DNA of 51,979 nt from Bacteroidota bacterium (GTDB lineage Bacteria > Bacteroidota > Ignavibacteria > Tepidaquicellales > Tepidaquicellaceae), in contig JAFDZO010000042.1 in assembly GCA_018266845.1 (NCBI GenBank), positions 1-51,979 of the forward strand. The letters are read 5' to 3'. Below the pieces are notes generated by a model, which saw only the letters and a program-made list of their open reading frames with translations, did no database searches and was not told where the DNA came from. Position 1 is the first letter of the stretch, and every line of letters starts with the position of its first letter. Position numbers and translations under genes: made by a program. Positions 1 through 29,917 of the stretch are shown here, piece after piece.

Positions 1-92
1 CTGCGTAGCGGCGGAAAACTGCTGCGTATCCCTGTTGCAACGCCGGAATGTTGTAATAAAAACAGATTGAACGGGTTAGTTAGCACGAAACT

Positions 93-483: not shown

Positions 484-831
484 AATTGTGAGTTATGAAC
501 TCATTAATCTCAAATCTTAAATCTTAAATACGGAATCCGAACTCTGAAATCTGAAATTTCTCTTCATTTCCTTTAAATCCGAAATCCTCTATCTTGAATT
601 AATAAACAATAGCTTACAAAAAACTACCATACAAAATTACGGCAGTTTTACAGTAATGTCAAGCGTTATTTGCGTCATTAATGCAGTAAATCATTTAATG
701 ACTAATTATTTATGGTAGTTAAGGGTGAGGGTAAAAATTTGTCCCCATTAATTTTGCGCAGCAGAAGTGCCGGAGCAGAGGGCGGTAAAGTAAAAAAACT
801 ACTTTTTTACGGTTAGTAATTTCAATTTCTT
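484..831. other. Intergenic AT-rich spacer without genes
   Basis: No open frame of note is seen. Positions about 497-600 are low-complexity, built from variants of short words such as AAATCTTAAATCTTAAAT and CTGAAATCTGAAAT. The same style of spacer recurs around 3767-3800 and in other gaps of the window. The remainder is plain AT-rich DNA that leads into the palindromic repeat at 832. Confidence 0.6.
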
Positions 832-974
832 TTAGTTTACCAAAGTAAAATAAGGAATTTTTTATTTTACTTTTGAGCTTGAAAGTAAAATAAGGTGTTT
901 TTTATTTTACCTTAGTTTACCAAAGTAAAATAAGGAATTTTTTATTTTACTTTTGAGCTTGAAAGTAAAATAAG
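832..974. repeat. 63-bp direct repeat with internal palindromes
   Basis: Two copies of a 63-bp sequence lie at 832-894 and 912-974 (period 80), with no difference seen between them. Each copy carries AAGTAAAATAA followed by its complement TTATTTTACTT, so hairpins can form. In total there are four AAAGTAAAATAAG words and three TTATTTTAC complements. The block sits about 50 bp before the first gene of the secreted-paralog array. It may be a regulatory site (operator cluster) or a mobile palindromic repeat; the sequence alone does not decide. Confidence 0.8.
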
Positions 975-1022: not shown

Positions 1023-2048
1023 ATGCTGAAAAAGGTTTCTATGACTATTAAAATAATTTTTGTTTTGATTTTAACTTGCAGCCTTGCGAATGCGCAATAT
1101 GCAGAGCGAATTCATCTGAATAACTTTGAATATTTTTTTCTTAAAGATTATGCATTAAGAAATGTTTTTGGAAACGATGCAAATATATTACGAGTTTGCA
1201 AAGTGAAGGCTGCAATGACAACCGATTCCACAGGAAGCATTATTTACGACAGCTTAAAGTTTGATGAGCGCGGAAATCTGATGAGGCATACCATATTGAA
1301 ATCGGATGTACGTAACGACTTCGGCGGTTTTCTTGGATACATGAATTATGGTAATAAAGTTTTCAATATCGAAGTTAACGAAGAAAAGAGCGAAGTTAAG
1401 TTTATTATACATCATAACGGAACGCATAAAGGCACAGGTTTCCCTGATACAGAATACAAAATTGTAATTACTCCCGATTCATTAAAAAGCACAATGTTCA
1501 CTTTTGAAGGTCCGATTGGAGATGATTATAAAGTAGAATTTTTTGAGCAGCGTTACATTAGAATCAATAAGTTTATAGAGACGAGAACTTTTATGAATGA
1601 CTTCAGCTGGAAAGGAAATCATCCCAGATATATTTACAAGTATGATTCTCTTTTAAATGCCAAAGGTTATTCAACATTAAATAATGGTGGAGAAGAATAT
1701 TACTCAGTCAGTGTTTTTTATAATAAAGATACAATTTCATTTATACCGTCTGATTTTGATGAAGAATGGCTGGATAACTTTCCAGATTTGGGGAAAGAGT
1801 TTTACATAATTAAAAATAACAGAATTTTTCGGAAGGAAATCATTTATCCTTTCGGGAAATACTACAATGCATTTCTTGAACCGAAAAACAGGCCAATATA
1901 TTTAAATACTGAATATCATTACAAAGAAAATGGATTGACTGATTACACTCTTACAGATTACACTGAATTTCAGACGGATTTCGACACTAATGAAAAAACA
2001 TACAAGGAAGGAAGATTTAAAAAGTATTTCAGGTATGAGTATTATTAA
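1023..2048 (+). CDS. Secreted array paralog 1
   Basis: 341 residues with a signal peptide (hydrophobic IIFVLILTCSLANA, cleavage before QYAE). Starts at 1023 or at the second ATG (1041) would both give a working leader. It belongs to the family that fills 1023-13273: a leader ending in A-Q, a mature N-terminus often QYxEF, a helix, then a KVK motif (here CKVKAAM), beta-rich segments with YD/RHS-like phrases, and an aromatic C-terminus (here YEYY). It is the longest member. The protein should be periplasmic, outer-membrane-associated or secreted, and its function is unknown. The stop overlaps the next gene by 14 bp, so translation of the two is probably coupled. Confidence 0.75.
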   Translation: MLKKVSMTIKIIFVLILTCSLANAQYAERIHLNNFEYFFLKDYALRNVFGNDANILRVCKVKAAMTTDSTGSIIYDSLKFDERGNLMRHTILKSDVRNDFGGFLGYMNYGNKVFNIEVNEEKSEVKFIIHHNGTHKGTGFPDTEYKIVITPDSLKSTMFTFEGPIGDDYKVEFFEQRYIRINKFIETRTFMNDFSWKGNHPRYIYKYDSLLNAKGYSTLNNGGEEYYSVSVFYNKDTISFIPSDFDEEWLDNFPDLGKEFYIIKNNRIFRKEIIYPFGKYYNAFLEPKNRPIYLNTEYHYKENGLTDYTLTDYTEFQTDFDTNEKTYKEGRFKKYFRYEYY

Positions 2049-2883
2049 ATATTTTCTCTTCTTTTTTTTCATATTATTTTCGTTTACTAATGTAAACGCC
2101 CAGTATGCTGAGTTTGAAAGATTTGACGACTGCGAGACATTTTTTCTGAATAAAATTATTTTTAAAGAAATAATTAAAGAAGATAAAAAAATTCTTGCTG
2201 CAAACAGAATACTTGAGATAAGGATTATTGAAGCTAACGGCTTCAGCGAAACAATTTTTCTGAATAAAAATTATACCGCAGACAGCATAATAAAAGATAA
2301 CTCAGGCAGAGAGGAAACGCATTTCATACACGATTCCGCCGGCTTGAAAAAAATCACGAAGAAGATAATTGTGTATATGGTGAACTCGGCTACTCAGCAG
2401 ACTAATAAATATTCGTTTCAAAATTCGCTGGCAGATTTTTTTCGTTCGCCCGATGCGGATACGGTTTACTACAATGATAAAGGAATTGTTGGCGATTCTT
2501 CAGTTTATATTTTTAAGAAAGATAAAAACGGAAATCCACTGGAGCTAATAAAATCATCTTCCGGTGAAGACGGAAAAATATATTACGGCTATGATAAAAT
2601 GGGTAAGTTAATTTCGCGCGCTGAGGGAAAAAATAAAATTGAGTTTACTGTAAATGACACGCTGATAAGATATTTTCACAACACAGATGCAGAGAGCAGA
2701 TTTTATCTGAACAACAAAAGAATAACAAGAATAGAGTATTTCGCTAAAGAAAAACTTGTAAAGTCAACAGCATTCAGATACGAACCAAGCGGGCTAATAG
2801 AAAGCGCGGAGGTTTTTATCTATACCGGCGGAGATGCAATCCGCACAAAACTTTTTTATGATTATTCATACTATGAAGATTAA
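2035..2883 (+). CDS. Secreted array paralog 2
   Basis: 282 residues from the ATG at 2035. An upstream in-frame start at 1990 would put 15 polar residues before the leader, so 2035 is preferred. The signal peptide is YFLFFFFILFSFTNVNA, followed by QYAEFERF. The family NKVK motif is degenerate here (AANRILEIRI). The middle part has YD-like text (YGYDKMGKLISRAEG), and the C-terminus is YSYYED. The start codon lies inside the C-terminal codons of paralog 1 (14-bp overlap), and the stop overlaps paralog 3 by 11 bp. Function unknown. Confidence 0.75.
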   Translation: MSIIKYFLFFFFILFSFTNVNAQYAEFERFDDCETFFLNKIIFKEIIKEDKKILAANRILEIRIIEANGFSETIFLNKNYTADSIIKDNSGREETHFIHDSAGLKKITKKIIVYMVNSATQQTNKYSFQNSLADFFRSPDADTVYYNDKGIVGDSSVYIFKKDKNGNPLELIKSSSGEDGKIYYGYDKMGKLISRAEGKNKIEFTVNDTLIRYFHNTDAESRFYLNNKRITRIEYFAKEKLVKSTAFRYEPSGLIESAEVFIYTGGDAIRTKLFYDYSYYED

Positions 2884-3766
2884 AATAATTTTATTACTGC
2901 TGCTTTTCAGCACAGTTTCATTCGCCCAGTACAACTTCCCTTTCACAAGCAGGTATGCCACGCTGCACCTGATGGTAAATACAAACCTGAAAAAATTTTT
3001 TGAAGCAGACTCAAAAAGACTGCGCGAGGCAAAAGTAAAATTAATTACTGCGGGCAATGATTCCGAGCCGGAGTTTGAAAAGTTTGAGGTGAACTCGCGC
3101 GGGCTGATTGAAAATTATATTACACACAGCGAGCTTTACCTGATGGGAGAGGATGAAACGGAATACAATATTAAATACAACATCGGCGGGCAGATTAGCT
3201 ACATTTACCACTCCCCCGACCAGACTGCATTTTTTTACGAGCATGATTTCGGAAAGTACTCCGGTCTGAAAAGCGAAAGCTATGACGGCATTGACTATAC
3301 GTGTAAATATTATTACAGGGATGAAATGCCCGATTCATTATACACTGATTTGAATTACAACGGAAAGCGCACAAGCACGCGGTTTAAAATCGAAACCGAT
3401 GCGGAGGCGCGGCTTATCAAAAAAATTACCGATGTAACAATCCCGACTCCCGAAATTGCGTTTACAGTCAGCGCAGACGATAAATCAATGACGATAAAAG
3501 CTCCCGATGTAAAGGACGACCTTTCTGCTTTTTACATGCCGCCGCGGGCTGACTATGATTACCAAAAATATATGAAGTTTATTTTTGAAGGGGATAAAAT
3601 TGCATCGTACACAACGATTAAAAAAATAAAAGAAACTATATATATTTATACAACAGCTTTCACTTATCAGCCGAACGGACTTATTGATACAGTTATAATT
3701 ACAAAATCCTCCGGCGGAAATCAGCTATACACAAAAAGTTTCAAGTATAAGTATGAATATTATTAA
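2873..3766 (+). CDS. Secreted array paralog 3
   Basis: 297 residues from the ATG at 2873. The longer frame from 2834 would bury the leader, so this start is preferred. The signal peptide is IKIILLLLLFSTVSFA, followed by QYNFPF. It has a helix and then REAKVKLIT (family motif), beta-rich YD-like repeats and the C-terminus FKYKYEYY. It closes a three-gene coupled set with paralogs 1 and 2. Base composition is slightly more GC-rich than in paralogs 1 and 2. Function unknown. Confidence 0.75.
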   Translation: MKIKIILLLLLFSTVSFAQYNFPFTSRYATLHLMVNTNLKKFFEADSKRLREAKVKLITAGNDSEPEFEKFEVNSRGLIENYITHSELYLMGEDETEYNIKYNIGGQISYIYHSPDQTAFFYEHDFGKYSGLKSESYDGIDYTCKYYYRDEMPDSLYTDLNYNGKRTSTRFKIETDAEARLIKKITDVTIPTPEIAFTVSADDKSMTIKAPDVKDDLSAFYMPPRADYDYQKYMKFIFEGDKIASYTTIKKIKETIYIYTTAFTYQPNGLIDTVIITKSSGGNQLYTKSFKYKYEYY

Positions 3767-3800
3767 TTTCAAATTTTGAATTTCAGATTTCAAATTTCTC

Positions 3801-3881
3801 ATGAAAACACATCATAAAATTTTATTGGCAATACTTGTGCTGCTCGTAATAGCAGCGTTTGTGAATTATATGATTTTGTAG
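3801..3881 (+). CDS. Possible 26-residue membrane peptide
   Basis: A short frame, ATG at 3801 and TAG at 3879. It encodes MKTHHK, then a hydrophobic helix (ILLAILVLLVIAAFV) and NYMIL. It has the shape of a single-span small membrane protein, or of a signal peptide left over from an array paralog. No clear ribosome site is seen. A chance frame cannot be excluded. Confidence 0.25.
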   Translation: MKTHHKILLAILVLLVIAAFVNYMIL

Positions 3882-3887
3882 AAACTA

Positions 3888-3915
3888 CACTCCCCCTTCT
3901 GCTAAGGAGGGGGCA
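3888..3915. repeat. Imperfect CTCCCCCTT / AAGGAGGGGG inverted repeat
   Basis: CTCCCCCTTCTGCT is followed by AAGGAGGGGG, giving an imperfect C/G hairpin between the array and the regulator gene. Related C/G-rich inverted repeats occur at about 35010-35053 and 49056-49111, so this looks like a member of a dispersed family. There is no T-tract after it, so terminator function is doubtful. Confidence 0.45.
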
Positions 3916-4006
3916 TGTAAAGCCGGATTGTTTTTATATAGATAAAATATTTTAAAGCAGACAGAAATAATTTACTTAGGCTATACATAATACTATCACT
4001 TGTTAA

Positions 4007-4648
4007 ATGATTCAAACACGATTGAAGCAGCTTCGCGAAGCTCTGGGGCTAAATAAAAATCAGCTTGCAGTCAGGCTTGGCGTTGATAACGGTTACCTTT
4101 CCCGGTATGAAAATGGAAAGGTGAAACCTAACTCTGATTTCTATGAGAGACTTGTGCAGAAATTTGAGAATGTAAATCTCTCATGGCTTATCAGCGGCGA
4201 GGGCGAAATGTTCATTCAAAAAATTTCTGCGCCAGAGAGAAGCAAAATCAGGAGCGTACCGCTTTACTCCTATGTTTACTGCGGCAGCCCGGCTTCCCAA
4301 TGGGATAATGACAAAGTAAAGGAGCATCTCTTTCTCCCCTCTCTCACAAAGTTCGGCGAAGTGTTCGGGCTGATTGCAAAGGGAGATTCTATGGCTCCCT
4401 ATATAAACCCCTACGATGTCTTAATCTGCGTAGATAAGCCCGACCTGCTGAAAGACGGCACTGCTGTTGTGTGCGTTTTTAAATCGGTTGATACGATTGA
4501 AGCGAATGCAAAGCTGCTAAAGCGTAACCGCAAAAACGGAACAGTAATGCTTTACTCTATTAATACAAAATATGAACCCGAAGTTTACAATGAAGATGAG
4601 ATTTTGAAAATTTATAAAGTGGTAAGGATAATAAGAGATGTAAAGTAA
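4007..4648 (+). CDS. CI/LexA-type transcriptional regulator (HTH XRE + S24 domain)
   Basis: 213 residues. Residues about 4-60 form an XRE helix-turn-helix (LREALGLNKNQLAVRLGVDNGYLSRYENG). Residues about 83-210 are an S24 peptidase-like domain with the nucleophile region KGDSM (Ser128) and a lysine in NAKLLKR (Lys169 or 172). A Cys-Gly pair at 92-93 (YVYCGSP) sits where LexA/UmuD/CI proteins cut themselves. Proteins of this build are repressors released by RecA-stimulated self-cleavage or sensing factors that use the fold for dimerisation. There are no phage structural genes nearby; it lies between two blocks of secreted paralogs on the same strand. Whether it controls them is an inference. 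Confidence 0.85.
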   Translation: MIQTRLKQLREALGLNKNQLAVRLGVDNGYLSRYENGKVKPNSDFYERLVQKFENVNLSWLISGEGEMFIQKISAPERSKIRSVPLYSYVYCGSPASQWDNDKVKEHLFLPSLTKFGEVFGLIAKGDSMAPYINPYDVLICVDKPDLLKDGTAVVCVFKSVDTIEANAKLLKRNRKNGTVMLYSINTKYEPEVYNEDEILKIYKVVRIIRDVK

Positions 4649-4692
4649 ATATTAAAATCTCATTGAGAAACCTTCTTATATTAATATTAATT

Positions 4693-4794
4693 AATGAGAA
4701 CGGCTATCCATATTCAAGAATATCGTATAGCATAGACGAATTTATTACGGGCAAAATTTACGCAGAATACTTTGATGGCACAAATGAACCTTAA
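4693..4794 (+). pseudogene. Remnant of an array-type protein C-terminus
   Basis: In the frame ending at TAA 4792 the translation reads NENGYPYSRISYSIDEF, then ITGKIYAEYFDG. This resembles the 'NENG...Y.Y' end region of the secreted paralogs. There is no start codon or leader in front of it. It lies directly after the regulator gene and before the next intact paralog, so it is probably the tail of a lost array member. Confidence 0.4.
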
Positions 4795-4846
4795 AAGCTA
4801 AATACAACATTTACGGCAATAGTAATAAAATACCAATACAAATATT

Positions 4847-5683
4847 ATGAATAGAAAAGCCTTCTCATTTATTTTATTATTTACGTTTTCTATCTGCTTA
4901 TCCACCGGGTATTCGCAGGCAGTGCTTAAAATAGATACTAGAAACATTTTGGATTTCATAGTAAATAATATTGTTCTGAAAGATAGACTAGACACTGAAG
5001 CAAAACTATGGAAGACACTTAAAGTAAAAGAGATTACTACACAATACCAAAGTGAAAGGCAAGAGTTTCGCGCAATCAGCCTTGTAAACACCGAAGGATA
5101 CATTTATGACAGGAAGGTTTATGACGAAGATAATTTTCTAATAACAACCTTCAAAGTTAATTATGAAAATAATTCGCACGAACCTTTATATATTGAATTT
5201 GAAGGAAACGGCAATTATGAAGCGCACAGCCTTCATTACAAAAATGGTAAGCTCGATTATATAAAAACAGATTTTGACATCCCCGAACAGGACGTAGTTC
5301 AGTTTTATTATGGAAGCGGAAAAAAAAGCAATCAAGTGGAAAAAATTGTTTTACTTCGCCCCAATGAACCCGCACTCACTACAATATTTTTGTATGACAA
5401 CTTCGGCAGGCTGTCAATTGTACAGAATGAAATCGGAAAAACTGAATATGCTTTTGAGTATTCCGAAAATAAAGTTGTAATGAACTATCGTTTTATCGTT
5501 GAAGATGTTTTTGAATATACAAATAGTATTTTTCGTAAACATACACAAACAAATAGAGAAAAAGGTATAATTTCATCAGAAGAATATACCTTTGGTGAAA
5601 ATGGGCTTAGAAACGAAGGAACAAGTTTGAACAAAGACGGCATTACAACGAATATCAAAATAAACTGGAAATATTATGAATAA
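4847..5683 (+). CDS. Secreted array paralog 4
   Basis: 278 residues. Signal peptide ILLFTFSICLSTGYS, with probable cleavage before QAV. The family motif is present as LWKTLKVKEIT at about residues 55-65. YD-like text follows (FLYDNFGRLSIVQNEIG), then EEYTFGENGLRNEG and the C-terminus INWKYYE. It begins the second block of the array. The stop overlaps the next start by 8 bp (ATGAATAA), implying coupled translation. Function unknown. Confidence 0.75.
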   Translation: MNRKAFSFILLFTFSICLSTGYSQAVLKIDTRNILDFIVNNIVLKDRLDTEAKLWKTLKVKEITTQYQSERQEFRAISLVNTEGYIYDRKVYDEDNFLITTFKVNYENNSHEPLYIEFEGNGNYEAHSLHYKNGKLDYIKTDFDIPEQDVVQFYYGSGKKSNQVEKIVLLRPNEPALTTIFLYDNFGRLSIVQNEIGKTEYAFEYSENKVVMNYRFIVEDVFEYTNSIFRKHTQTNREKGIISSEEYTFGENGLRNEGTSLNKDGITTNIKINWKYYE

Positions 5684-6587
5684 AAGATTTTACAAAATCA
5701 TCGTTTTACTATTTTTATCTGCATGTTTTACAAAGGCAGATGCGCAGCTTTTAAACTTTGGAGATTTTTATTCTCTTGAAAGCTTTGTAATTAAACACTC
5801 TCTACTGAGAGAATATTATATAGCAGAAGCCTCTACTTTTAAAAACAACAAAATTAAAAAAGTAAAAGCCATTGCCGGAGATGAACGGACAATATTCCTA
5901 ATGATACTTAACGAAGAAGGAATGCCCGTTGAAATCAAAAAACAAATCCGGGAAAATCTTGAGGTTGAAAAATATCTAATTGATTATGTTTCAGCCAATG
6001 AGCCATCAAAAATCTCATACTACTTAAACAGTGAATTTCAATATAACATAGAGCTTTTTTATAAAAACGGAAAGCTTTTAAATGTAAAATGCGATTGGCC
6101 TGAGTTGAAGGAAAATGAAATAGTAATATCATACGATGAGAATAACGATAAAATAGAGAAGCTGACATTACTTTTAGACGGTCAAAGGAAATCAAATACC
6201 AAAAGTGTTAGTAATAAAGGAGCAACAGTATTTACAGATAACAGAGATTCCATAAAGATTATTTTTCAAGCCATAGATAAATTTATTATGATGTCGGAGC
6301 CCCGACAAAATTCTGAGATTTTAACTTTTTCTAACGACCGCCTTACCGCAAGAATTTTGCTAAAGACATCCAGCTTAGCTAATGTTGATAAAAGTATTTT
6401 AAAAAACTTGAAAGTTGAAGATGGCAAAGATAAATTATCAAGTTTTATTGAATTTATGCAGGCGACAAATGCTTCTTCTGAAATATACGACTATAATGCT
6501 TCAGGCATTATGAACAATTTTCTAATCAATACAGGCAGCGATGATGTTATAAACTGTAACCTTGAGTTTGAATATTATACTGACTAA
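5676..6587 (+). CDS. Secreted array paralog 5
   Basis: 303 residues. Signal peptide IIVLLFLSACFTKADA, followed by QLLNFGDF. The cysteine in the leader does not make a good lipobox. The family motif is FKNNKIKKVKAI, and the C-terminus is LEFEYYTD. The start ATG lies in the last codons of paralog 4. A truncated, frameshifted fragment follows directly, so this block has lost at least one member downstream. Confidence 0.75.
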   Translation: MNKRFYKIIVLLFLSACFTKADAQLLNFGDFYSLESFVIKHSLLREYYIAEASTFKNNKIKKVKAIAGDERTIFLMILNEEGMPVEIKKQIRENLEVEKYLIDYVSANEPSKISYYLNSEFQYNIELFYKNGKLLNVKCDWPELKENEIVISYDENNDKIEKLTLLLDGQRKSNTKSVSNKGATVFTDNRDSIKIIFQAIDKFIMMSEPRQNSEILTFSNDRLTARILLKTSSLANVDKSILKNLKVEDGKDKLSSFIEFMQATNASSEIYDYNASGIMNNFLINTGSDDVINCNLEFEYYTD

Positions 6588-6859
6588 AAGAGTTTTCCAT
6601 TTAACACCCAACGATACCTATGGTGAGGGGCAAATTCTTAATCTACGCAGTGAAATTGCATTCATAAATGAACGCAGTATTATTTCATATATCATGCTAA
6701 ACGAGGACAAAATTTTATACTCGATGCCTTCACGAAAAAAATTATTATGCCGAAAAGTTTAAAGAGTTTCTCACTGAAATAAATTCAAACGGCTTTGGGT
6801 TCGTCGTAGATAAAAATCTCAACCGCATACTTACAGAATACGTTTGCAAGTATTACTAA
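6588..6859 (+). pseudogene. Truncated and frameshifted array member
   Basis: Directly after paralog 5 an open stretch with no leader continues to about 6733. It then changes frame at a run of seven A (6735-6741) and continues as NYYAEKFKEFLTEINSNGF to a stop at 6857, ending EYVCKYY like the family C-terminus. The missing signal peptide and the frameshift mark it as a decayed copy. A TTG start at 6562 inside the previous gene is formally possible but would give no leader. Confidence 0.5.
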
Positions 6860-6877
6860 ACGAATTTCACTAAACAA

Positions 6878-7093
6878 ATGAACTCTTTCAACTTTAAAAA
6901 ATCGTCTTTTGCTTTTTTGATAGCTCCCTGCAATATTCCTATAACAGAATGCGACGGATTGGAGATAAATGTATTTTTGGTTGACGATAAAAGAGTTATG
7001 CTAACGCTTTAGGATGAGAGCAAAAGTATAGTGGCTTTTAGCAGCAGCAAAATCGGCGATACTGAAGTCACCATTAAATATAATACATATTAA
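6878..7093 (+). pseudogene. Short gene with in-frame TAG
   Basis: From ATG 6878 the frame reads MNSFNFKKSSFAFLIAPCNI for 44 codons to a TAG at 7010-7012, then continues in the same frame as DESKSIVAFSSSKIG to TAA at 7091. The second part ends VTIKYNTY, like a family tail. The TAG is probably an inactivating mutation; TAG readthrough is not suggested elsewhere in the window. It ends 4 bp before the lipoprotein start. Confidence 0.45.
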
Positions 7094-7097
7094 AAGT

Positions 7098-7868
7098 ATG
7101 AGTCATAAAATACAGCCGTTCTTAACTTTGACTATATTCACTATGGCACTTTTCTTCGCCTCCTGCGGAGAAAAGCCGCCGGAGCGAAAACAGTTCTCTA
7201 CAGAGTTAAAATCCGGCGCGCCTGCAAGCGAGTTCACTATAAAATTTGAAGGGACACCGGGAACGACCATGCAGGGCTATATTACTCCCGCAGGAAAAGA
7301 ATCACTTGATTCGATTATTGTCGATGGTCCCGCCGGAGCAGAGGTAAGGACAATGAAGGCAAACAAAGTATTCTGTTATATTGTAAAAAAAGGTGAAGGC
7401 GGAAATATCCGTGTGAGCATTTTTTCCGGTAATAAGTTAATGATTAGAGATTCTACAGGTGCAGATAACGGATTCATTCAACTCACGGCTCTGCCGGATT
7501 CGGCAGGCATAAATCGCGAATATGTAAAAGATTCAATTGCATTCTTTCTTTCTATTACTTCCGATGAAAAAATGTCGCTTCCCATAAAACTTAGAAAAAG
7601 CATGATGAAAAATTTTGCAACTTCAATGCACAGGCTCAATATTCCGGTAGTTATACCGATAACAGATTGTCAAAAATTTGAAGCTGATGTTTTTAATGAT
7701 GAAAATTTCATGGCGGAGTTTACATGCGAAATATGGAACTCTAAAAAAGAACCTATTGCAAGAAAGACTTGCCCTGAAGGAGGTCCGGGAGTTGGTGTAC
7801 ATTTGTACGATGATGAATTTTTCAGAAAGAAAAAAATCCAGTACGATACAGTAGAGGCAAAGAAGTGA
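7098..7868 (+). CDS. Lipoprotein inside the secreted array
   Basis: 256 residues with a lipoprotein leader (ALFFASC, Cys at about 23), so it is lipid-anchored in the envelope. Residues about 45-135 form a beta-rich domain: FTIKFEG, PAGKESLDSIIVDGPAG, GNIRVSIF, GFIQLT. The same order of phrases occurs in the lipoprotein at 14879, so the two are related. The C-terminal half has an ITDC...EFTCEIW segment with several cysteines. Its stop overlaps the GTG start of the next array gene by 4 bp (GTGA), which ties it to the array as a co-translated member. No known function. Confidence 0.7.
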   Translation: MSHKIQPFLTLTIFTMALFFASCGEKPPERKQFSTELKSGAPASEFTIKFEGTPGTTMQGYITPAGKESLDSIIVDGPAGAEVRTMKANKVFCYIVKKGEGGNIRVSIFSGNKLMIRDSTGADNGFIQLTALPDSAGINREYVKDSIAFFLSITSDEKMSLPIKLRKSMMKNFATSMHRLNIPVVIPITDCQKFEADVFNDENFMAEFTCEIWNSKKEPIARKTCPEGGPGVGVHLYDDEFFRKKKIQYDTVEAKK

Positions 7869-8767
7869 AAAAAGGATTTTTAATATTTATATTTTTTTTA
7901 TATGCATCTGCCGGCGCGCAATATACTTCTCTTGTAGCAAGAAATTATCCTCCATTACAAGAGGCTATTTCTGAATATTTACAGCTTGAGAAAAAAAACT
8001 TAATCTTTACAATTAAGAAGAATAAAATAAAGAAAGTTCTCTATGTAATAAAGGGACAGGATGCCTTTACATGTGATTTTAATAGAGAGGGTCTGCCTGT
8101 TCACTACGTAGAGCTTGATTCTCTCGGCAAAGATACAGTATTTAAGGCAGAGCTTTTTTACAATAATATGAATAACATGATAGAGTACAAATCTTATTCT
8201 AAAATTTACGGCAGAGATGATTATAGTTTTTTTTACGAAAATAACCGGCTTACTTCGTATGAATGTAAAGCTGATGAATCAAGCCGTGAAAAAGTTACCT
8301 TGATTTATGATAATATAGGAAAGATTGCTGCAGTATCCGAAATTACAATCGAAGGCAGAAACAGGTCTTACGAATTTTTCAGAGGAAAAAATGGAACACT
8401 TGATTCCATTATGTATGAAGGAAAGACGATTCATCTATTTTCTAAAGATGAAAAAATTTTAACAGTATTATCTCCATACGGCTATTTAGAGTGTTACTTG
8501 GTTTTTGACGGCATTATTAACGGTGAACTTGTTATAAATTTTAGTAAAGCTGATGAACAAACACTTCTTAAATTGTTAGACTTGGCAAAAACAACCACTG
8601 AGCTTAGTGAATATGGGAAGTATTTCGGTGCTTTCAAAAAAGAAGTAATTTTGGATTTATACAGAAGTTATTATGATGAAAAGGGAGTACCGGAATATGT
8701 GGAATCATACAACCCTGACTTTACAATTGAAATCGGAAGATATATTTATGAATATTACGAAAACTAA
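7865..8767 (+). CDS. Secreted array paralog 6
   Basis: 300 residues from a GTG start that overlaps the lipoprotein stop by 4 bp. Signal peptide GFLIFIFFLYASAGA, followed by QYTSLVARNY. The family motif is clear: FTIKKNKIKKVLYV. YD-like text follows (TLIYDNIGKIAAVSEI), and the C-terminus is YIYEYYEN. It starts a run of three closely spaced paralogs (gaps of 6 and 8 bp). Function unknown. Confidence 0.75.
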   Translation: MKKGFLIFIFFLYASAGAQYTSLVARNYPPLQEAISEYLQLEKKNLIFTIKKNKIKKVLYVIKGQDAFTCDFNREGLPVHYVELDSLGKDTVFKAELFYNNMNNMIEYKSYSKIYGRDDYSFFYENNRLTSYECKADESSREKVTLIYDNIGKIAAVSEITIEGRNRSYEFFRGKNGTLDSIMYEGKTIHLFSKDEKILTVLSPYGYLECYLVFDGIINGELVINFSKADEQTLLKLLDLAKTTTELSEYGKYFGAFKKEVILDLYRSYYDEKGVPEYVESYNPDFTIEIGRYIYEYYEN

Positions 8768-8773
8768 TTAATT

Positions 8774-9616
8774 ATGTGTCGCTTTATTGTGATAATCATC
8801 TTGCTTTTCACTTCAGTTTGCTCGCGCGCGCAGTATACTTTCTACTTAAATATTGAACAAGTTGATAAATATTTAACCCGAAAAATCTATTTTGATGATG
8901 TTTGGAAATTAGACAGGGAAATTTTAAAAAATAATAAAGTTTCAAAGGTTACTGTTTATGATTACGGAAATGTGCTTGAGTTTATGATGAATATTAATAA
9001 AGAAGGATATGCCGTTTCGTTCAGGTACTTTGAGCGGCGTTTAAAAACACAAGTCGGATGTGGTTACCGCCCTGATACAATGCTTGTATTTTACAACAAT
9101 GAAAATAATATTGAAAAGATAAAGAGTGTACCTACGCTTTTGGGTTTTGGAGATATAGAACATAATTTGAATTATACAAATAATGACCTCAAGTCTGTAA
9201 TTATTAATTATGATGGAAAATTTTATGAATCTGATAGTATTCTTTATTTAAACGGAAAGCCGGTGAATGTTCTGCATTTTTACAGATACGGGGGTCAGCC
9301 AGTTTCGTCAATATTCTTTTACTCTCCTGATACAACTCATAACAACGGAAAGCCTATAATCGGCGGAGATTGGGAAATTTATGCCACGAATAAAGACAGC
9401 ATTGCCTTTGTCGCGGGTGAAATACCCCTTGAAATTACTACGCTAAAGAACAACAGAATTGCGATGCAATATTTTGATTATGGTGAAAGACGTTTTGGGA
9501 GAGCTTTTATGGAATATGTTTATAAGCCTGACGGTTTAATTCAATACATTAAAATAAAAGACCGCCTCGGTAGAAATCACACAAGGTTTTACGAATACGA
9601 ATATTATTCAGACTAA
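8774..9616 (+). CDS. Secreted array paralog 7
   Basis: 280 residues. Signal peptide FIVIIILLFTSVCSRA, followed by QYTFYLN. Family motif ILKNNKVSKVTVYDYG. Late segment YVYKPDGLIQYIKIKDRLG and C-terminus YEYEYYSD. The 6-bp gap from paralog 6 and 8-bp gap to paralog 8 indicate one transcript. Function unknown. Confidence 0.75.
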   Translation: MCRFIVIIILLFTSVCSRAQYTFYLNIEQVDKYLTRKIYFDDVWKLDREILKNNKVSKVTVYDYGNVLEFMMNINKEGYAVSFRYFERRLKTQVGCGYRPDTMLVFYNNENNIEKIKSVPTLLGFGDIEHNLNYTNNDLKSVIINYDGKFYESDSILYLNGKPVNVLHFYRYGGQPVSSIFFYSPDTTHNNGKPIIGGDWEIYATNKDSIAFVAGEIPLEITTLKNNRIAMQYFDYGERRFGRAFMEYVYKPDGLIQYIKIKDRLGRNHTRFYEYEYYSD

Positions 9617-9624
9617 AAAATTTT

Positions 9625-10455
9625 ATGAATAAACTAATTTTAGTTTTACTGTTATTCATTAGTATCAATGCGCGCGCGCAGTACGCAGAGTTTTACGCAA
9701 TCGAAGTTCCTGAAAGGTATGTAATGGGAACGCTCTTATTCAAAGACATTCTTCTGAAGGATGCCGAAGTTATGAAGTCAAACAAAGTGAAAGAGGTATA
9801 TATAAAAACAGGAGAGAAAACAGAAGAGAAGATGCTTGTGAACTCACAAGGGTACATAGAAGATTATTATACGTTCAACCCGGAGACCGATGCGATTGAA
9901 ACGCACTGGCGGTTTGGCTATGGAGAAGGAAACATTTTAACAAGCGCGTATTTCCGCCATGCAAGGCAGCGCATTAATTACATTCTCTCCTATGAAAATG
10001 GCAGGCTGGCAAAAATCAACTGTGATTCTGCCGGCACCGAAAGCCAATGGAGTTTTGAATATGAAGCAGGCAGGATGTCGAAAATGATTTATACGAAATC
10101 AGCCTTCGACAGCTTTGCTTTAACATATAATTTTTTATACGATGCTGAAAGCAGGGTTATTAGCGTACAAACCGGAGACGGTGAAAAAATTTATAGCATA
10201 ACCTATGATAACAGCTCACTAAAAATTTCGTACGGAATGATTTTCAGTAATAAATATAAATTTAAAGATGAAAGAATTACCGAAAAAGTTTTTGAGTATC
10301 AGACCAAAGAGTATTTGCAGACACAAACCCCTTCTAAAATTATCACAACACAGGAGGAATATATTTACAATGAAAAAGGATTAATAACCGAAAGCGTGAT
10401 TAAGTCAGACTCAAATGAAAAAAAGTCAGTTTTTGAATACAGTTTTTATGAGTAA
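9625..10455 (+). CDS. Secreted array paralog 8
   Basis: 276 residues. Signal peptide LILVLLLFISINARA, followed by QYAEFYA, a typical mature N-terminus of the family. The motif EVMKSNKVKEVYIKTG is close to the family consensus. The pattern 'YNEKGLITESVIKSD' comes before the C-terminus FEYSFYE. It ends the tight run; the next paralog follows after 83 bp. Function unknown. Confidence 0.75.
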   Translation: MNKLILVLLLFISINARAQYAEFYAIEVPERYVMGTLLFKDILLKDAEVMKSNKVKEVYIKTGEKTEEKMLVNSQGYIEDYYTFNPETDAIETHWRFGYGEGNILTSAYFRHARQRINYILSYENGRLAKINCDSAGTESQWSFEYEAGRMSKMIYTKSAFDSFALTYNFLYDAESRVISVQTGDGEKIYSITYDNSSLKISYGMIFSNKYKFKDERITEKVFEYQTKEYLQTQTPSKIITTQEEYIYNEKGLITESVIKSDSNEKKSVFEYSFYE

Positions 10456-10538
10456 TGTTTTATGAGAAAAATGTGAGTGTATTTTCTTCCCGCTAAATAT
10501 TAAATTTAAAATTAATCAAAAATTCCCAAAATTCACCA

Positions 10539-11492
10539 ATGAAAAAGTTTCTATACCTTTGTTTGCTTTGCTGCATCCTCTTATCCTCAAATGCGTTTGC
10601 GCAATATTCGGAGTTTTTCAAATATCAAAAGCCCCTGCTTCAGCTTATCACTAATACTGCTCTTGACAGCGTAATAAAAGTTGACCAGAGAAAAGTGAGA
10701 ATGAACCGGATTGCAGGAGTTACTGTCAGCGACCAGAACGGGAAAAAGATTGAATACATGCTTTACGATTTGAAGGGAAACATCTCGCAATATTACCAGT
10801 TTGAAGATACGGCAAAGTTTACCTATGACAAGCTCGGGAAAGTTGTTTATACGGTGCTAGATTCATTTCCGAAAAATGTCTATGAAAATATTATCTTCCA
10901 ATACAATGATGCAGGGCAATGCGTGCTGATTGATAAAAACTATAATGATGTTCTCCCTGAAGTAAGAATGGATTTCATCTATGAAAATAAATATCTGAAG
11001 TCAATAACTGCCATTAAAGAGAACTCAGATTTCCGCAAACAATACGGATTTTTTTATGAAGGCGTAAACAATATGGTGAAGAACATCACTGTTGCAAACT
11101 TAGGCGTTGATGAAATCGGAGCAACGAAGTTTGCTCTTGACTATAACACTCTTGGAAAGCTTGCTTCGGTAAAGTTCACCGATAACAATCTGGCTTTTGT
11201 AAATATCCGCTACAGCGGAGATACTGCCCATGTTTCCCCGAATGAAAACGTGTTCGACCCCGTGAACGGAATAGGTCCGCTGGATCAGGTATTCTATGTG
11301 ATAAAAAATCAGCGTATCACTTCGCGTGTTTCGCTGCTGAAGTTTTCCACTTACAACGTGATGCGCGTCGCAGATTATGTCTATACCAATGAAGGTGTGA
11401 TTGATTACATCAATGTAAACTATCACTGCTACAGAGGAATTATTAAAACCGAAAAGCTGAATTATACCTATGAGATTTATGAGAAGAATTGA
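10539..11492 (+). CDS. Secreted array paralog 9
   Basis: 317 residues. Signal peptide FLYLCLLCCILLSSNAFA, followed by QYSEFFKY. Family motif VRMNRIAGVTVSDQNG, then several YD-like phrases (LYDLKGNISQYY, FTYDKLGKVVY, FQYNDAGQCV, LDYNTLGKLASV). This member shows the resemblance to YD/RHS repeats best. C-terminus NYTYEIYEKN. It is the last plus-strand member and faces two minus-strand members. Function unknown. Confidence 0.75.
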   Translation: MKKFLYLCLLCCILLSSNAFAQYSEFFKYQKPLLQLITNTALDSVIKVDQRKVRMNRIAGVTVSDQNGKKIEYMLYDLKGNISQYYQFEDTAKFTYDKLGKVVYTVLDSFPKNVYENIIFQYNDAGQCVLIDKNYNDVLPEVRMDFIYENKYLKSITAIKENSDFRKQYGFFYEGVNNMVKNITVANLGVDEIGATKFALDYNTLGKLASVKFTDNNLAFVNIRYSGDTAHVSPNENVFDPVNGIGPLDQVFYVIKNQRITSRVSLLKFSTYNVMRVADYVYTNEGVIDYINVNYHCYRGIIKTEKLNYTYEIYEKN

Positions 11493-11537
11493 GCTTGTTA
11501 TTTTTTCAGCAGCAAGCAGGAATAAAAATTAGAGTAC

Positions 11538-11561
11538 TTCCTCTCCGGCGCAGGAGAGGAA
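11538..11561. terminator. Hairpin between convergent genes
   Basis: TTCCTCTCC and GGAGAGGAA form a perfect 9-bp stem around the loop GGCGCA. It sits between the convergent ends of paralogs 9 and 10. No T-tract follows on the plus strand (A-rich instead), so it is not a canonical terminator, though the position suits a shared one. Confidence 0.45.
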
Positions 11562-11617
11562 AAATCGGCGCATAGCTTCATAAATTCTCATGTTGAAATT
11601 TTCTTCTAATCTTTTTC

Positions 11618-12421
11618 TTAATCATCATAATATTTAAAAACATATTTTCTTTTTGAAACTACTCCGTTTCTGGAAAAAACTTCACCCCGAACGCCGTTCT
11701 CATCAATTGTGTATTCTATTTCGCTGATAAGCATTCCTTTATAGAAGCAAATATTCTTTGTTACTTCATTATTGGCAATCTTATACACTAATTTATCACC
11801 CGAATCATTTTCGATACTATATTCCTCCGGCAAGTTCTTCACAAAATATTTATCAATGGAATTCCCGCCTCCATACTTCAAAGAGACTTTTACATCTTCA
11901 TTCGTGTAACTGAACTCATAAGCCAGCTCTTTATCTTTAAAATTTTCGTTAACCAATCTTTTTATTCTTCCATTGGAAATTTCAAAATTATACCTTATAT
12001 GTTTTGTAGAATCATAATTGATTATCAAATAATCCGGGTATTTTCCAGTGTAAAAAATAATCAGCGTCGTTTTCTTTTTTTCAGTTCCAATGGTAATCGA
12101 ATCGGGGCTTCCCGAATTATTATAAGAAACAAATAAATTTTTATTTGCCAAAGTATTAATATCAAATCCGTAATAGCTCTGTATTAACCTGCCGTTTCTG
12201 TCGTATTTAAAATCATCTATCACTCTGCCGGATTCGATTTCAACAATTTGCGATTCTTTTACTTTTTCTTTCTTTACCCATGATTCATTTATTTCGTTTA
12301 ATCTCTGCATAAGGGTAAAAGTCAGATAATAAGAAAGTATCCCATCCGGGTTATATCTTTCACTCTGCGCAGAGACAGAAGAAGAGATAAAAATTAGTAG
12401 AGCCAGAACTATTTTCTTCAT
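11618..12421 (-). CDS. Secreted array paralog 10
   Basis: 267 residues on the minus strand. Signal peptide IVLALLIFISSSVSA, followed by QSERYN. Family motif WVKKEKVKESQIVEIESG, YD-like FKYDRNGRLIQSYYG and C-terminus YVFKYYDD. It follows paralog 11 with a 3-bp gap, so the two form an operon that converges on the plus-strand array. Shortest intact member. Function unknown. Confidence 0.75.
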   Translation of the reverse strand: MKKIVLALLIFISSSVSAQSERYNPDGILSYYLTFTLMQRLNEINESWVKKEKVKESQIVEIESGRVIDDFKYDRNGRLIQSYYGFDINTLANKNLFVSYNNSGSPDSITIGTEKKKTTLIIFYTGKYPDYLIINYDSTKHIRYNFEISNGRIKRLVNENFKDKELAYEFSYTNEDVKVSLKYGGGNSIDKYFVKNLPEEYSIENDSGDKLVYKIANNEVTKNICFYKGMLISEIEYTIDENGVRGEVFSRNGVVSKRKYVFKYYDD

Positions 12422-12424
12422 GTG

Positions 12425-13273
12425 TTATTTGTAAAACTCGTATTGATAATATTGTGTATAGTTACGCATCTTACCGTCTATATCTTTATACGAAACCGTT
12501 ACGCTTTCCCGCAAGCCCGATGCGCTAAATTTGTTTTCATAGCTGATATAACCCTTGCCGCCATCAAAATCCAGAGACATTTTTTGCGCGATATTATTCT
12601 TAAACTCAAGAACTATCTTATCGTTTTCAACTGTTGTTAAAGTTATCTTATCCGGTTCGTTTAAGATTTTATACAAATCCGGCGAACCCTCTTCATAAAC
12701 ACGGATTAATTTTCCCGACTCGCTGTATTTAAAATTTATATAATAATAGTCATCATCATATCGCTGCATTTTTATCTTTGTCAGCATCGGCTCGCCGGGA
12801 TTATCGGAGTAAACCGGAGCGCTTAAGTAATAATCAATACTGTCCCCTGAATAAATTATAGAGCTTATCTTCCCGTTTTTATAATAGAAGTGTGAAATAT
12901 ACGTCAAACCGCTTTCATCTGTCTGATAAATAATGGAGGGCATATTTATAGAATCATATACTATTCTTACCGCGCTAACCGGTGATTGCATTGTGTCAAA
13001 CGAATACTCCATATTTATTAAGCCGTTAACATCTATGAAACGTATTCTTTCAGACCAGAAATCATCTTTGCTGTTTTTAAGATAAATTTTTTTCACTTTA
13101 TTGCGCTTCAGCAGCTTTGATTCCGCATCCAGATTTTCTTTAAACAGTATTCTGAAAGTCATAAGCCGCGCAATTGATGAATTGTCATAAGAATGACCCG
13201 GCTGCGCAAACGACTTAAAAGGAGAGATTATTACTGCAAGAAAAATTATTATTGCTGCAAGAAAAAATTTCAT
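12425..13273 (-). CDS. Secreted array paralog 11
   Basis: 282 residues. Leader FFLAAIIIFLAVIISPFKSFA, followed by QPGHSYDN. Motif LLKRNKVKKIYLKNSK is the cleanest copy of the family signature. Later text NFKYSESGKLIRVYEEG and C-terminus YQYEFYK. First gene of the two-gene minus-strand operon with paralog 10. The upstream 100 bp is very AT-rich and must hold the promoter, but no convincing consensus was found. Function unknown. Confidence 0.75.
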   Translation of the reverse strand: MKFFLAAIIIFLAVIISPFKSFAQPGHSYDNSSIARLMTFRILFKENLDAESKLLKRNKVKKIYLKNSKDDFWSERIRFIDVNGLINMEYSFDTMQSPVSAVRIVYDSINMPSIIYQTDESGLTYISHFYYKNGKISSIIYSGDSIDYYLSAPVYSDNPGEPMLTKIKMQRYDDDYYYINFKYSESGKLIRVYEEGSPDLYKILNEPDKITLTTVENDKIVLEFKNNIAQKMSLDFDGGKGYISYENKFSASGLRESVTVSYKDIDGKMRNYTQYYQYEFYK

Positions 13274-13754: not shown

Positions 13755-14762
13755 ATGAGAAAAATGATTTTTACTTCGCTGATGCTTACTGCCTTAGCAG
13801 TTTTATCAGGCTGCAATAACGACGGGCTTGTTTCACCTGACGAAGGAAGCGGTATATTCAAGTGGTCTGTTACAGATTCAGTTTTTTATACAACTCAAAT
13901 CCAAATCGTTGATGAAAACACATTGCTTATTGCCGGAGATTTTTCCAATTGCTATAAAATTCAAAATGGAGTTAAGACACGTCTTGAATTAGAAGAAACT
14001 GATTTCCTTAGCTCAACCATAAAATTTCTCAATGCAGATTACTTCGCATTTGCAAATACTTATAGTTACTCTTATCCCATAAGCACAAAAATAAAATATT
14101 TTAAAAAAGGTATATTGAATACAATAAGTTTTTCTTATGGAGGATATTACGATACAAGAATTTTTGATTTCCTATTGCTGGATACAAATAAACTGCTAAT
14201 CAATACGTCTGATAGTTTATTTATATTTGAAAATTCTCTCGGCAAAAAAATTAAAGGAAGTAACTTTGTATTGCATACAGGCAGACTGGCAAAATCGGAT
14301 GGTAAGATTTATGTGATTTTGTTTGATACATATCAGCAGTCAGTAAGCGCTGCGCAAATCATAAATGACAGTTTACAGGCTTTCTCATTTCTTTCAGACG
14401 CAAAAAATATCTGGATAGATAATATCAAAGGAAAGATTGTTAAAGAATGGCAGGATATTGACCGCAAAACAAATCTTTCCTATCTCAGCCCGCAAGGCTG
14501 GATAACTTTTTTTTCATCTAATATAAAATATTTTCAGTCTATTGCAGGTGAAAGCATAGACAATTTTTATTTCAGCGCAAGAGATTCGTCAAATAAAATC
14601 GTAAGAGGGTACTATAACGGAAGAGCAATATTGGAAGATACTAATTTTCCCGTTAAGGATTCAACGGGCTTAAGCGTTTCAATGCTTAACGGAACAATTT
14701 ACGCTTCAAGAGAAATCTACTCCAGCGGAAAATCTTATATTTATAAAGGTGTAAGAAGGTAA
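13755..14762 (+). CDS. Lipoprotein, member 1 of a four-gene family
   Basis: 335 residues. Lipoprotein leader LAVLSGC (Cys20), then a short linker NNDGLVSP. The rest is beta-rich with short repeated segments (ENTLLIAGDFSNCYKI, INTSDSLFIFEN) and ends SYIYKGVRR, suggesting a propeller-like fold. It shares length, leader, the 'SP...F.W' opening and the 'F.DS.F' phrases with the proteins at 20718, 45498 and 46518. It should be a membrane-anchored envelope protein. Ligand and role are unknown. Confidence 0.7.
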   Translation: MRKMIFTSLMLTALAVLSGCNNDGLVSPDEGSGIFKWSVTDSVFYTTQIQIVDENTLLIAGDFSNCYKIQNGVKTRLELEETDFLSSTIKFLNADYFAFANTYSYSYPISTKIKYFKKGILNTISFSYGGYYDTRIFDFLLLDTNKLLINTSDSLFIFENSLGKKIKGSNFVLHTGRLAKSDGKIYVILFDTYQQSVSAAQIINDSLQAFSFLSDAKNIWIDNIKGKIVKEWQDIDRKTNLSYLSPQGWITFFSSNIKYFQSIAGESIDNFYFSARDSSNKIVRGYYNGRAILEDTNFPVKDSTGLSVSMLNGTIYASREIYSSGKSYIYKGVRR

Positions 14763-15356: not shown

Positions 15357-16184
15357 TTGAATACAAATAATAGAATTCTCTCGGGAAAAGCGAATTTCCT
15401 TCTTGAAAGTCTGATTTCGCAGAATAAAAATTTTTTCAATATTCAGGATGCCATAGAGATTATTGAAAATAGTTCTATTACAAATGTGAGCGAACTTCTG
15501 CGTTCGATAGCGCGCAGAGGGCGAATACGAAAAATTTCGGCAGGATTGTATTGTATAGTTCCTTTAGGTGAAAATGCAGATACATATTTGCCGGACTGGC
15601 ACTTAACTGCGAAAGAGCTTGTCAACAATTCACCCTACTATATAGGGTTTTACAGCGCATTGGATATTCACGGTCTTATTACCCAGCCCTCTTTAACCGA
15701 GCAGGTTGTAACTTCAAAACAGTTTATACCGAAGCATAAAAAAATAGGAAGCGTAAAATTTGAATTCATATACTTTAATGAAAAACATTTCTTCGGATTT
15801 GAAAATACATGGATTGACAAGTATGATAAAATTCAATGCAGCGATTTGGAAAAAACCTTTATAGATTGCCTGTATAAACCAGGATATGGTTCAGGAATAA
15901 CTGAAATTGTTAAAGCGATTTACAAAGCTCGTGATAAAATTAGCGAAGAGAAGATGCTGAATTATCTGGAAAAATTTGATTCGCAGGCTGTGATGCAAAG
16001 ACTCGGATTTATTTTATCGAAGCTGGATATTTTATACATGCTTAGAAAGTATCTGCAATCAAATATTACAAAAGTTTATACTCCGCTCGACCCCTCCCTG
16101 CCCTCTGAAGGAAAATATCATTCGCAATGGAGCATACAGGAGAATATAAAATTCGAAGAAATTAAAAATTCTCTGGAAAACTAA
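15357..16184 (+). CDS. AbiEi-family antitoxin (type IV toxin-antitoxin)
   Basis: 275 residues from a TTG start directly after the inverted repeat. N-terminal winged helix about residues 10-70 (FFNIQDAIEIIENSSITNVS, then RRGRIRKISAGLYCI), then the larger AbiEi C-terminal domain (LVNNSPYYIGFYSALDIHG, CSDLEKTFIDCLYKPGYGSG). The family represses its operon and counteracts the nucleotidyltransferase toxin encoded next. The toxin gene begins 3 bp downstream. Length and order match typical AbiE systems, which act in abortive infection against phage. Confidence 0.9.
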   Translation: MNTNNRILSGKANFLLESLISQNKNFFNIQDAIEIIENSSITNVSELLRSIARRGRIRKISAGLYCIVPLGENADTYLPDWHLTAKELVNNSPYYIGFYSALDIHGLITQPSLTEQVVTSKQFIPKHKKIGSVKFEFIYFNEKHFFGFENTWIDKYDKIQCSDLEKTFIDCLYKPGYGSGITEIVKAIYKARDKISEEKMLNYLEKFDSQAVMQRLGFILSKLDILYMLRKYLQSNITKVYTPLDPSLPSEGKYHSQWSIQENIKFEEIKNSLEN

Positions 16185-16187
16185 TTT

Positions 16188-17003
16188 ATGATTAAGCCCG
16201 GTGAAATTAGTAAAATTGCAAACCAAAACGGACTTCGCGATACTCAAATTGAAAAAGATTATATATTGGGATGGGTTTTATATGCAATATCCAAAAATGA
16301 TTCACTGAATAAATTGCTTGTGTTCAAAGGCGGAACTGCGATAAGAAAACTTTACATAGGTGATTACCGGCTTTCCGAAGACCTTGACTTTACTCTTGCG
16401 GAAGGAAAAATAAATACCGTTAGTCTGAAAAGCGAGTTTGAAAAAATTATTAACTGGATTAAGAATGAATCGCGCTTAGAATTAGAAATCCGTGATGAAA
16501 CCATAAACACAAAAGGAAATTATTCGTTCTATATAGGATACATTGGTCCATTGGGCGGAGATATAAAAAAGAGAGATATTAAAATTGATATAAGCGACAA
16601 CGAAATAATATGCGATGAAATTAAAGAGAGTACTGTCTTGAATCAGTATTCGGATTTAAGCGAAGAATATTCATTAAAAAGTTATACTATAAATGAAATT
16701 ATAGCCGAGAAACTAAGGTCGCTGATGCAAAGAACTGTGCCAAGAGATTTGTATGACGTATGGTATCTGCTTGAAATTGAACAAAATAATTTGGAAAGCT
16801 GCATTGAGTATTTTAAGAAAAAAGCAGAATTTAAAGAAAAGAATCCCGTTGAGTTTTACGATACTGTAACAGCAAAGAAAGAAAAATTTAAAGGTGAATG
16901 GGAAAAGAGTCTTGATAAACAATTTAAAGAGATTCCCGATTTAGAAAAAATCTGGCGGGAATCTTTAAGACATTTTAAAAAAATATCAAAACTGCTAAAC
17001 TAA
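16188..17003 (+). CDS. AbiEii/AbiGii nucleotidyltransferase toxin
   Basis: 271 residues. Motifs of the family are intact: EKDYILGW (22-29), FKGGTAIRKLY (46-56), RLSEDLDF (61-68, the metal-binding aspartates), DIKIDIS, and the late AEKLRSLMQRTVPRDLYDVW. The toxin transfers nucleotides to target RNA (GTP-binding or tRNA-modifying in studied members) and stops growth. It is paired with the antitoxin gene 3 bp upstream. All catalytic residues expected from the motif are present, so it should be active. Confidence 0.92.
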   Translation: MIKPGEISKIANQNGLRDTQIEKDYILGWVLYAISKNDSLNKLLVFKGGTAIRKLYIGDYRLSEDLDFTLAEGKINTVSLKSEFEKIINWIKNESRLELEIRDETINTKGNYSFYIGYIGPLGGDIKKRDIKIDISDNEIICDEIKESTVLNQYSDLSEEYSLKSYTINEIIAEKLRSLMQRTVPRDLYDVWYLLEIEQNNLESCIEYFKKKAEFKEKNPVEFYDTVTAKKEKFKGEWEKSLDKQFKEIPDLEKIWRESLRHFKKISKLLN

Positions 17004-25950: not shown

Positions 25951-25961
25951 AGCTGTAAATT

Positions 25962-28130: not shown

Positions 28131-28141
28131 AGCTTAATATT

Positions 28142-29842: not shown

Positions 29843-29899
29843 ATCTTTAGAATATACTTATTTTAATACATAAAAAATAAATAAGTTTACTTTAATTTC

Positions 29900-29917
29900 C
29901 TATGATTTATATCATAG
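29900..29917. other. Small palindrome between genes
   Basis: CTATGAT and ATCATAG form a 7-bp stem with loop TTAT, a few bases after the stop of the 29925 gene on the minus strand. No T-tract follows, so it may be a weak terminator or processing site, or part of the promoter region of the 28142 gene. Confidence 0.4.

What the first reader, a model, noticed from the sequence alone, without database searches (positions are those of the whole stretch)
1023..13273. Array of eleven diverged, coupled secreted paralogs of unknown function
Seen: eleven intact genes (1023-3766, 4847-6587, 7865-11492 on +; 11618-13273 on -) encode 267-341-residue proteins with a signal peptide, usually a mature N-terminus QYxEF or similar, a helix, an NKVKxV-type motif near residue 55-65, YD/RHS-like strands and an aromatic end such as YEYY. 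Several are joined by 4-14 bp overlaps. Known: YD-like repeats occur in RHS toxins and in secreted FCB proteins. Inference: a lineage-specific secreted family kept in many diverged copies, possibly for interactions that favour diversity (surface, phage or rival contact).
Basis: partly seen in the sequence, partly recalled or inferred. Interest (0 to 1): 0.65.

Follow-up and report, generated by a model that had tools for sequence, protein, structure and literature searches.

The report
Array of diverged exported YD-shell proteins
Eleven neighbouring bacterial genes encode distant relatives of one exported beta-sheet protein, built like short pieces of the shells that hold Rhs toxins and kept as an old, changing array beside a prophage; what they do is unknown, but the pattern resembles sets of protective proteins against attackers.

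Summary
Eleven intact genes form one family: with signal peptides removed, each is recovered by a profile built from the other ten. All carry Gln at the export cleavage site. They are short YD/RHS-type proteins: a family profile matches solved Rhs and teneurin shells, and a confident AlphaFold model (pLDDT 90.8) shows an N-terminal helix followed by a long antiparallel beta meander. The closest whole-domain folds are a Bacteroides 'porin-like' protein (4ghb) and, more weakly, LolA/LolB. They lack a T9SS sorting domain, toxin domain and Rhs cleavage motif, so they are most likely periplasmic, not released. The full-length family was found only in this genus: 13 copies here, 7 in the one sister species held, in the same place beside a prophage-like element and around its S24-type repressor. 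The copies diverged before the species split; only one (10539-11492) is well conserved (76%), while most neighbouring genes keep 73-87%. Distant single-copy relatives occur across the phylum. Best guess at role: periplasmic binding proteins against varying incoming proteins (toxins or phage), as in polyimmunity loci. That role is inference. New variant of a known kind.

The parts
1023..2048 (+). g1, exported YD-family protein, 341 aa
   Evidence: leave-one-out 29 bits
2035..2883 (+). g2, exported YD-family protein (alternative start 1990); overlaps g1 by 14 bp
2873..3766 (+). g3, exported YD-family protein; overlaps g2 by 11 bp
4847..5683 (+). g4, exported YD-family protein
5676..6587 (+). g5, exported YD-family protein; overlaps g4 by 8 bp; lipobox-like stretch in signal peptide
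7865..8767 (+). g6, exported YD-family protein; overlaps lipoprotein gene by 4 bp
8774..9616 (+). g7, exported YD-family protein
9625..10455 (+). g8, exported YD-family protein; RHS_repeat above cut-off; model pLDDT 90.8; 37% to G001 s6
10539..11492 (+). g9, the conserved member, 76% to G001 s7 in synteny
11618..12421 (-). g10, exported YD-family protein
12425..13273 (-). g11, exported YD-family protein
4007..4648 (+). S24/LexA-type HTH repressor of phage type inside the array, 87% to its counterpart in the G001 array
7098..7868 (+). lipoprotein of a second small family, translationally coupled to g6
621..747 (.). 127-bp non-coding block, 85% identical at the same place in G001
845..950 (.). 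three 26-nt palindromic operator-like elements, 40 bp apart, unique in the genome
142..483 (-). small acidic protein conserved beside the prophage end in G001

Best explanation
Shown: the eleven genes are ancient paralogs of one exported family of short YD/RHS-type beta-shell proteins with an N-terminal helix, a genus-restricted array form of a phylum-wide single-copy type, kept beside a prophage-like element and around a phage-type repressor. Inferred mechanism: each protein is exported by Sec, cleaved before Gln and stays in the periplasm. The helix packs against the conserved aromatic face of the curved sheet (as in LolA/LolB-like open barrels), while the variable face binds a partner. The copies differ because the partners differ. 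The most likely partners are proteins that arrive from outside, such as toxins acting in the periplasm or phage proteins, so that the array works like a homogeneous polyimmunity locus, with g9 serving a constant partner. Rough confidence: family and fold 0.9; periplasmic place 0.75; binding of varying incoming proteins 0.35.
For: One family. Profile matches to Rhs (E 6e-6; 1.2e-15 with distant relatives added) and teneurin shells. Confident helix-plus-meander model; both models put 4ghb first (Z 9.4 and 9.6), with LolA/LolB matches that include the helix. No T9SS domain in members while a neighbour scores. One strand face conserved and hydrophobic, the other variable (mean BLOSUM 0.77 against -0.08; loops 0.64). 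Tandem, close-spaced, intact diverged copies whose number differs between species fit the published description of homogeneous polyimmunity loci (PMC3482391). B. fragilis Bti1, a tested T6SS immunity protein, is a DUF4595 lipoprotein (PMC11854122; PMC7604300), and the DUF4595 proteins found here read as YD-like. Neighbours include AbiEi/AbiEii and a type IIG-like restriction enzyme.
Against: No toxin partner and no known immunity domain was found; most known immunity proteins are cytoplasmic (PMC3482391). The family is not DUF4595 by sequence: no PF15283 hit in the genome, and profile-profile probability only 29% over 80 columns. A LolA-like fold could equally mean lipid or lipoprotein binding. 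dS is saturated, so diversifying selection is neither shown nor excluded. Z near 9 is only moderate. Only two genomes carry the array.
Confidence: 0.38

Rival explanations
1. Periplasmic carrier set: the proteins are LolA/LolB-like open barrels that bind lipids, lipoproteins or other hydrophobic ligands, and the copies serve different cargo (for example the many lipoproteins and barrel proteins encoded nearby).
For: LolA/LolB/DUF1329 matches that include the helix in both models (Z 5-8); neighbouring lipoprotein and barrel families are also expanded; a LolA-like gene lies beside the single-copy relative in G008.
Against: Z values are in the range that unrelated folds reach; Rhs matches are stronger by sequence; cargo carriers are usually conserved, whereas these diverge strongly between species.
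Confidence: 0.25
2. Prophage cargo (lysogenic conversion): g1-g3 and perhaps the rest are accessory genes of the adjacent prophage-like element, controlled by its S24 repressor, and change the envelope of the lysogen, for example to exclude other phages.
For: Array lies directly beside the element in both genomes; phage-type repressor inside the array in both; conserved 127-bp block and operator-like palindromes before g1.
Against: Array is absent near related phage genes in other genera and from viral contigs; c1/c2 lie about 16 kb outside the element; right end of the element not mapped; palindromes not seen upstream of the sister array.
Confidence: 0.2
3. Ordinary paralog expansion: an old set of envelope proteins with overlapping or diverged housekeeping functions, drifting under weak constraint, with no conflict role.
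For: Other families of the region are also multiplied (barrels, lipoproteins, T9SS proteins); no sign of positive selection could be shown.
Against: All 20 copies are intact although very diverged; one copy is held at 76% while positional neighbours fall to 37% or less; such long retention implies use.
Confidence: 0.2

Closest known systems
RHS/YD-repeat proteins (Rhs toxins, teneurins)
   Same: YD-type repeat strands by profile and fold; tyrosine-rich meander
   Different: 267-341 aa only; no closed shell, no DPxG cleavage motif, no toxin or T6SS domain; N-terminal helix added
Single-copy short exported YD-repeat proteins of Bacteroidota
   Same: signal peptide, YD strands, C-terminal YEYY-like end, often an NKVK/NRVK-type motif
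   Different: usually one copy per genome and more regular repeats; here 11+2 strongly diverged copies, 11 of them in an array
Bacteroides 'porin-like' proteins 4ghb (BACUNI_01323) and 3tzg (BVU_2266)
   Same: best single-domain fold match of both models (Z 9.4/9.6 and 7.2)
   Different: no detectable sequence match; their function is unknown
DUF4595 lipoproteins such as B. fragilis Bti1 (T6SS immunity)
   Same: short exported YD-like proteins
   Different: PF15283 not matched here; lipoproteins; single immunity gene beside its effector
Homogeneous polyimmunity loci (PMC3482391)
   Same: tandem, close-spaced, diverged paralogs whose number differs between genomes, no toxin in between
   Different: exported proteins of no known immunity family; two genes in reverse orientation; a regulator and a lipoprotein gene inside
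LolA/LolB and RseB fold
   Same: helix against a curved antiparallel sheet
   Different: about 17 strands against about 11 (the latter from memory); no sequence similarity found

Membership tests
RHS/YD-repeat superfamily | YD-type repeats detectable by profile | tested here: met
   PF05593 above cut-off in one of 11 (E 1.2e-6); family profile against Rhs E 6e-6 and 1.2e-15; Foldseek E 7e-8
RHS toxins | long core shell, DPxG-type autocleavage motif, C-terminal toxin | tested here: not met
   267-341 aa; no DPxG or PxxxxDPxGE in any of 20 members; no toxin domain
DUF4595 (PF15283) | match to the family profile | tested here: not met
   no hit in the genome at E 1e-6, none in the Pfam scan at E 1; profile-profile probability 29%
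Homogeneous polyimmunity locus | tandem diverged paralogs, short spacing, number varies between genomes | tested here: met
   nine of eleven genes in one orientation
Homogeneous polyimmunity locus | genes belong to a known immunity family | tested here: not met
   no immunity family among Pfam, NCBIfam or PHROG matches of the eleven; PADLOC was run on g8 only, no match
Homogeneous polyimmunity locus | products neutralise toxins | not testable with these tools
   needs experiment
T9SS cargo | C-terminal sorting domain (TIGR04183) | tested here: not met
   none in members; control neighbour 33656-34873 scores 39 bits
Sec/signal peptidase I substrates following the Bacteroidetes Q-rule | Gln directly after the cleavage site | tested here: met
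   Gln invariant in 20 members; rule described in PMC5837995; cleavage itself is inferred from the sequence
LolA/LolB fold | helix-plugged open barrel | tested here: inconclusive
   Z 5-8 including the helix in both models

The most novel reading that the evidence does not exclude
A new kind of exported polyimmunity array: a genus-specific set of short YD-shell proteins, linked to a long-kept prophage-like element, in which each copy neutralises a different toxin or phage protein arriving in the periplasm, built from the same fold that cages Rhs toxins.
Probability: 0.15. Interest if true: 0.8.

Novelty: new variant of a known kind. Interest (0 to 1): 0.45.

Why it matters
Short exported YD-repeat proteins are found across Bacteroidota and I found no assigned function for them. 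A natural set of 20 diverged copies in two species, one conserved and the rest variable, with a confident fold, makes the function testable. If the copies turn out to bind incoming toxins, the toxin-caging fold would also be an immunity fold.

Tried and rejected
PHROG and NCBIfam gave no convincing family for the members, and PADLOC none for g8, the only member scanned; one lone NCBIfam hit (adenine phosphoribosyltransferase, E 8e-6, one member) was set aside as unlikely and not pursued. dN/dS: dS is saturated or undefined, so positive selection was not tested. Tree: mostly unresolved, end branches about 2.3 changes per site; joins other than g9/s7 are not trusted. Mapping the right end of the prophage by what follows addB in relatives failed: in most of the seven it is xth-qor genes that are not in this window. 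DUF4595 as the family itself was rejected; that 4ghb and 3tzg are DUF4595 proteins is from memory and could not be confirmed. No Rfam hit. Metagenome contigs could not be scanned.

Full report
WHAT IS THERE. The window is one complete contig (C36) of a 3.53-Mb genome in 46 contigs. Eleven intact genes of 267-341 aa lie between 1023 and 13273, nine on + and two on -. They are tightly packed: overlaps of 14, 11 and 8 bp inside the family, 4 bp between a lipoprotein gene (7098-7868) and g6, and gaps of 3-83 bp between most other neighbours. An S24 repressor gene lies between g3 and g4.

ONE FAMILY. Identities are about 14-26%, so BLAST alone gives patchy hits. With signal peptides removed, a profile of any ten finds the eleventh at 23-82 bits, against at most 13.8 bits for 999 shuffled versions of each. 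A profile of all eleven finds the 11 array genes plus one on contig C42; with relatives added it finds a second next to it. Only faint possible remnants were found elsewhere in the region.

EXPORT. Gln directly after the likely cleavage site is invariant in all 20 members. This is the Bacteroidetes Q-rule: signal peptidase I exposes Gln, which is then cyclised (PMC5837995, PMC10653852). No member has a T9SS sorting domain, whereas a neighbouring protein scores clearly for it. Of the eleven only g5 has a lipobox-like stretch. The most likely place is therefore the periplasm; that is inference.

FOLD. The profile of 20 members matches solved Rhs and teneurin shells (best E 6e-6), and 1.2e-15 once five distant single-copy relatives are added. 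Pfam RHS_repeat is above its cut-off in only one of the eleven. AlphaFold on mature g8 with the ten window paralogs gives pLDDT 90.8 and pTM 0.85: helix 11-34, then a meander of about 17 strands. Mature g9 gives a weaker model of the same layout (76.6). Foldseek ranks Rhs and teneurin shells first for g8 (E 7e-8). By VIA-align both models put the Bacteroides 'porin-like' protein 4ghb first (Z 9.4, 3.9 A over 180; Z 9.6, 4.9 A over 200), and LolA/LolB-type proteins follow with the N-terminal helix included (Z 5-8). Within strands one face is conserved and hydrophobic, and the other is the most variable part of the protein, more so than the loops.

DISTRIBUTION. Among 29 genomes of the family only the one same-genus genome, G001, has full-length relatives at array-level scores: seven genes at one place. 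Weaker short YD proteins occur in a few genomes of the family and, with the own genome, in 31 of 395 genomes of the phylum at E 1e-4. Those read in full show a signal peptide, YD strands and usually a YEYY-like end, and the four tested score for RHS_repeat. So the array is a genus-level elaboration of a phylum-wide type.

AGE AND TURNOVER. The tree is nearly star-like with end branches around 2.3 changes per site; own and sister copies are intermixed as if labels were shuffled. The copies thus mostly diverged before the two species did. One pair, g9/s7, is 76% identical in synteny, and g8/s6 37%. Neighbours outside the family keep 87% (repressor), 79 and 81% (AbiEi, AbiEii) and 73% (lipoprotein 14846), but the lipoprotein 7098 only 33% and the barrel protein 17025 56%, so fast change is not confined to the array. 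dS is saturated, so only dN can be compared (g9 0.16, g8 about 0.67, repressor 0.08). The number and identity of copies differ between species, by loss, gain or very fast change; which one is not resolved.

PROPHAGE LINK. Upstream of the array in G001 lies a prophage-like element with portal, head protease, major head protein, terminase, endolysin, replication initiator and RecE-like exonuclease. In the window's genome its counterpart reaches the end of contig C42, and the last 23 bases of C42 are the first 23 of C36 within a repeat, so the two contigs very probably join there (inference supported by synteny). Both elements follow addB. The repressor inside the array is of phage type with an S24 domain. 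A 127-bp non-coding block is 85% identical between the species. Three 26-nt palindromic elements 40 bp apart precede g1 and occur nowhere else in the genome; they are not seen upstream of the sister array. Whether the array belongs to the element is open.

HOW IT MAY WORK. I commit to periplasmic binding proteins whose variable face meets varying incoming proteins, like a polyimmunity locus. Supporting literature: homogeneous polyimmunity loci are tandem, close-spaced, diverged paralogs that vary between strains (PMC3482391); a tested T6SS immunity protein of B. fragilis, Bti1, carries DUF4595 (PMC11854122, PMC7604300), whose members read here are YD-like. But this family is not DUF4595 by sequence, and neither a toxin nor protection has been shown. 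Rivals are a LolA-like carrier set, prophage cargo, and plain paralog expansion.

VERDICT. A real and tidy family array within a known superfamily, for which I found no earlier description; interesting mainly because it gives a handle on widespread short YD proteins of unknown role.

Noticed in passing
G000:C42 80.7-105 kb (L084, L085) and G001:C5 408.6-439 kb (L081, L033): Prophage-like element at the same site after addB in two species, with head protein 96% and protease and endolysin 83% identical at high dS and no integrase seen: probably vertically kept, possibly domesticated.
   Followed up: partly
window 3801-3881; L034 2055-2133: A 25-26-residue hydrophobic reading frame sits just before the repressor gene in both species.
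   Followed up: partly
window 6902-7097 and 4702-4791: Apparent decayed remnant of the lipoprotein family of 7098-7868, and a faint possible remnant of a YD-family gene.
   Followed up: partly
window 17025-17621, 17662-18261, 20129-20695, 21961-22536: Second expanded family: four small exported proteins that look like outer-membrane barrels, also multiplied in the sister species.
   Followed up: no
window 13755-14762, 20718-21728, 45498-46502, 46518-47531: Third expanded family: lipoproteins of about 335 aa; the one tested has no Pfam match; also repeated in the sister.
   Followed up: no
window 23752-39374: Run of large exported proteins with repeated TTNGG-type motifs and near-identical C-terminal T9SS sorting tails.
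   Followed up: no
window 15357-17003 and 41897-44617: AbiEi/AbiEii pair and a type IIG-like restriction-methyltransferase near the array.
   Followed up: partly
end of G000:C42 and window 1-23: Tandem repeat unit with CTGCGTAGCGGCGGAAAACTGCT that breaks the assembly between C42 and C36.
   Followed up: partly
L035:6563-7456 and 7601-8473 (-): Two further family members side by side on C42, with no counterpart found in the sister genome.
   Followed up: partly
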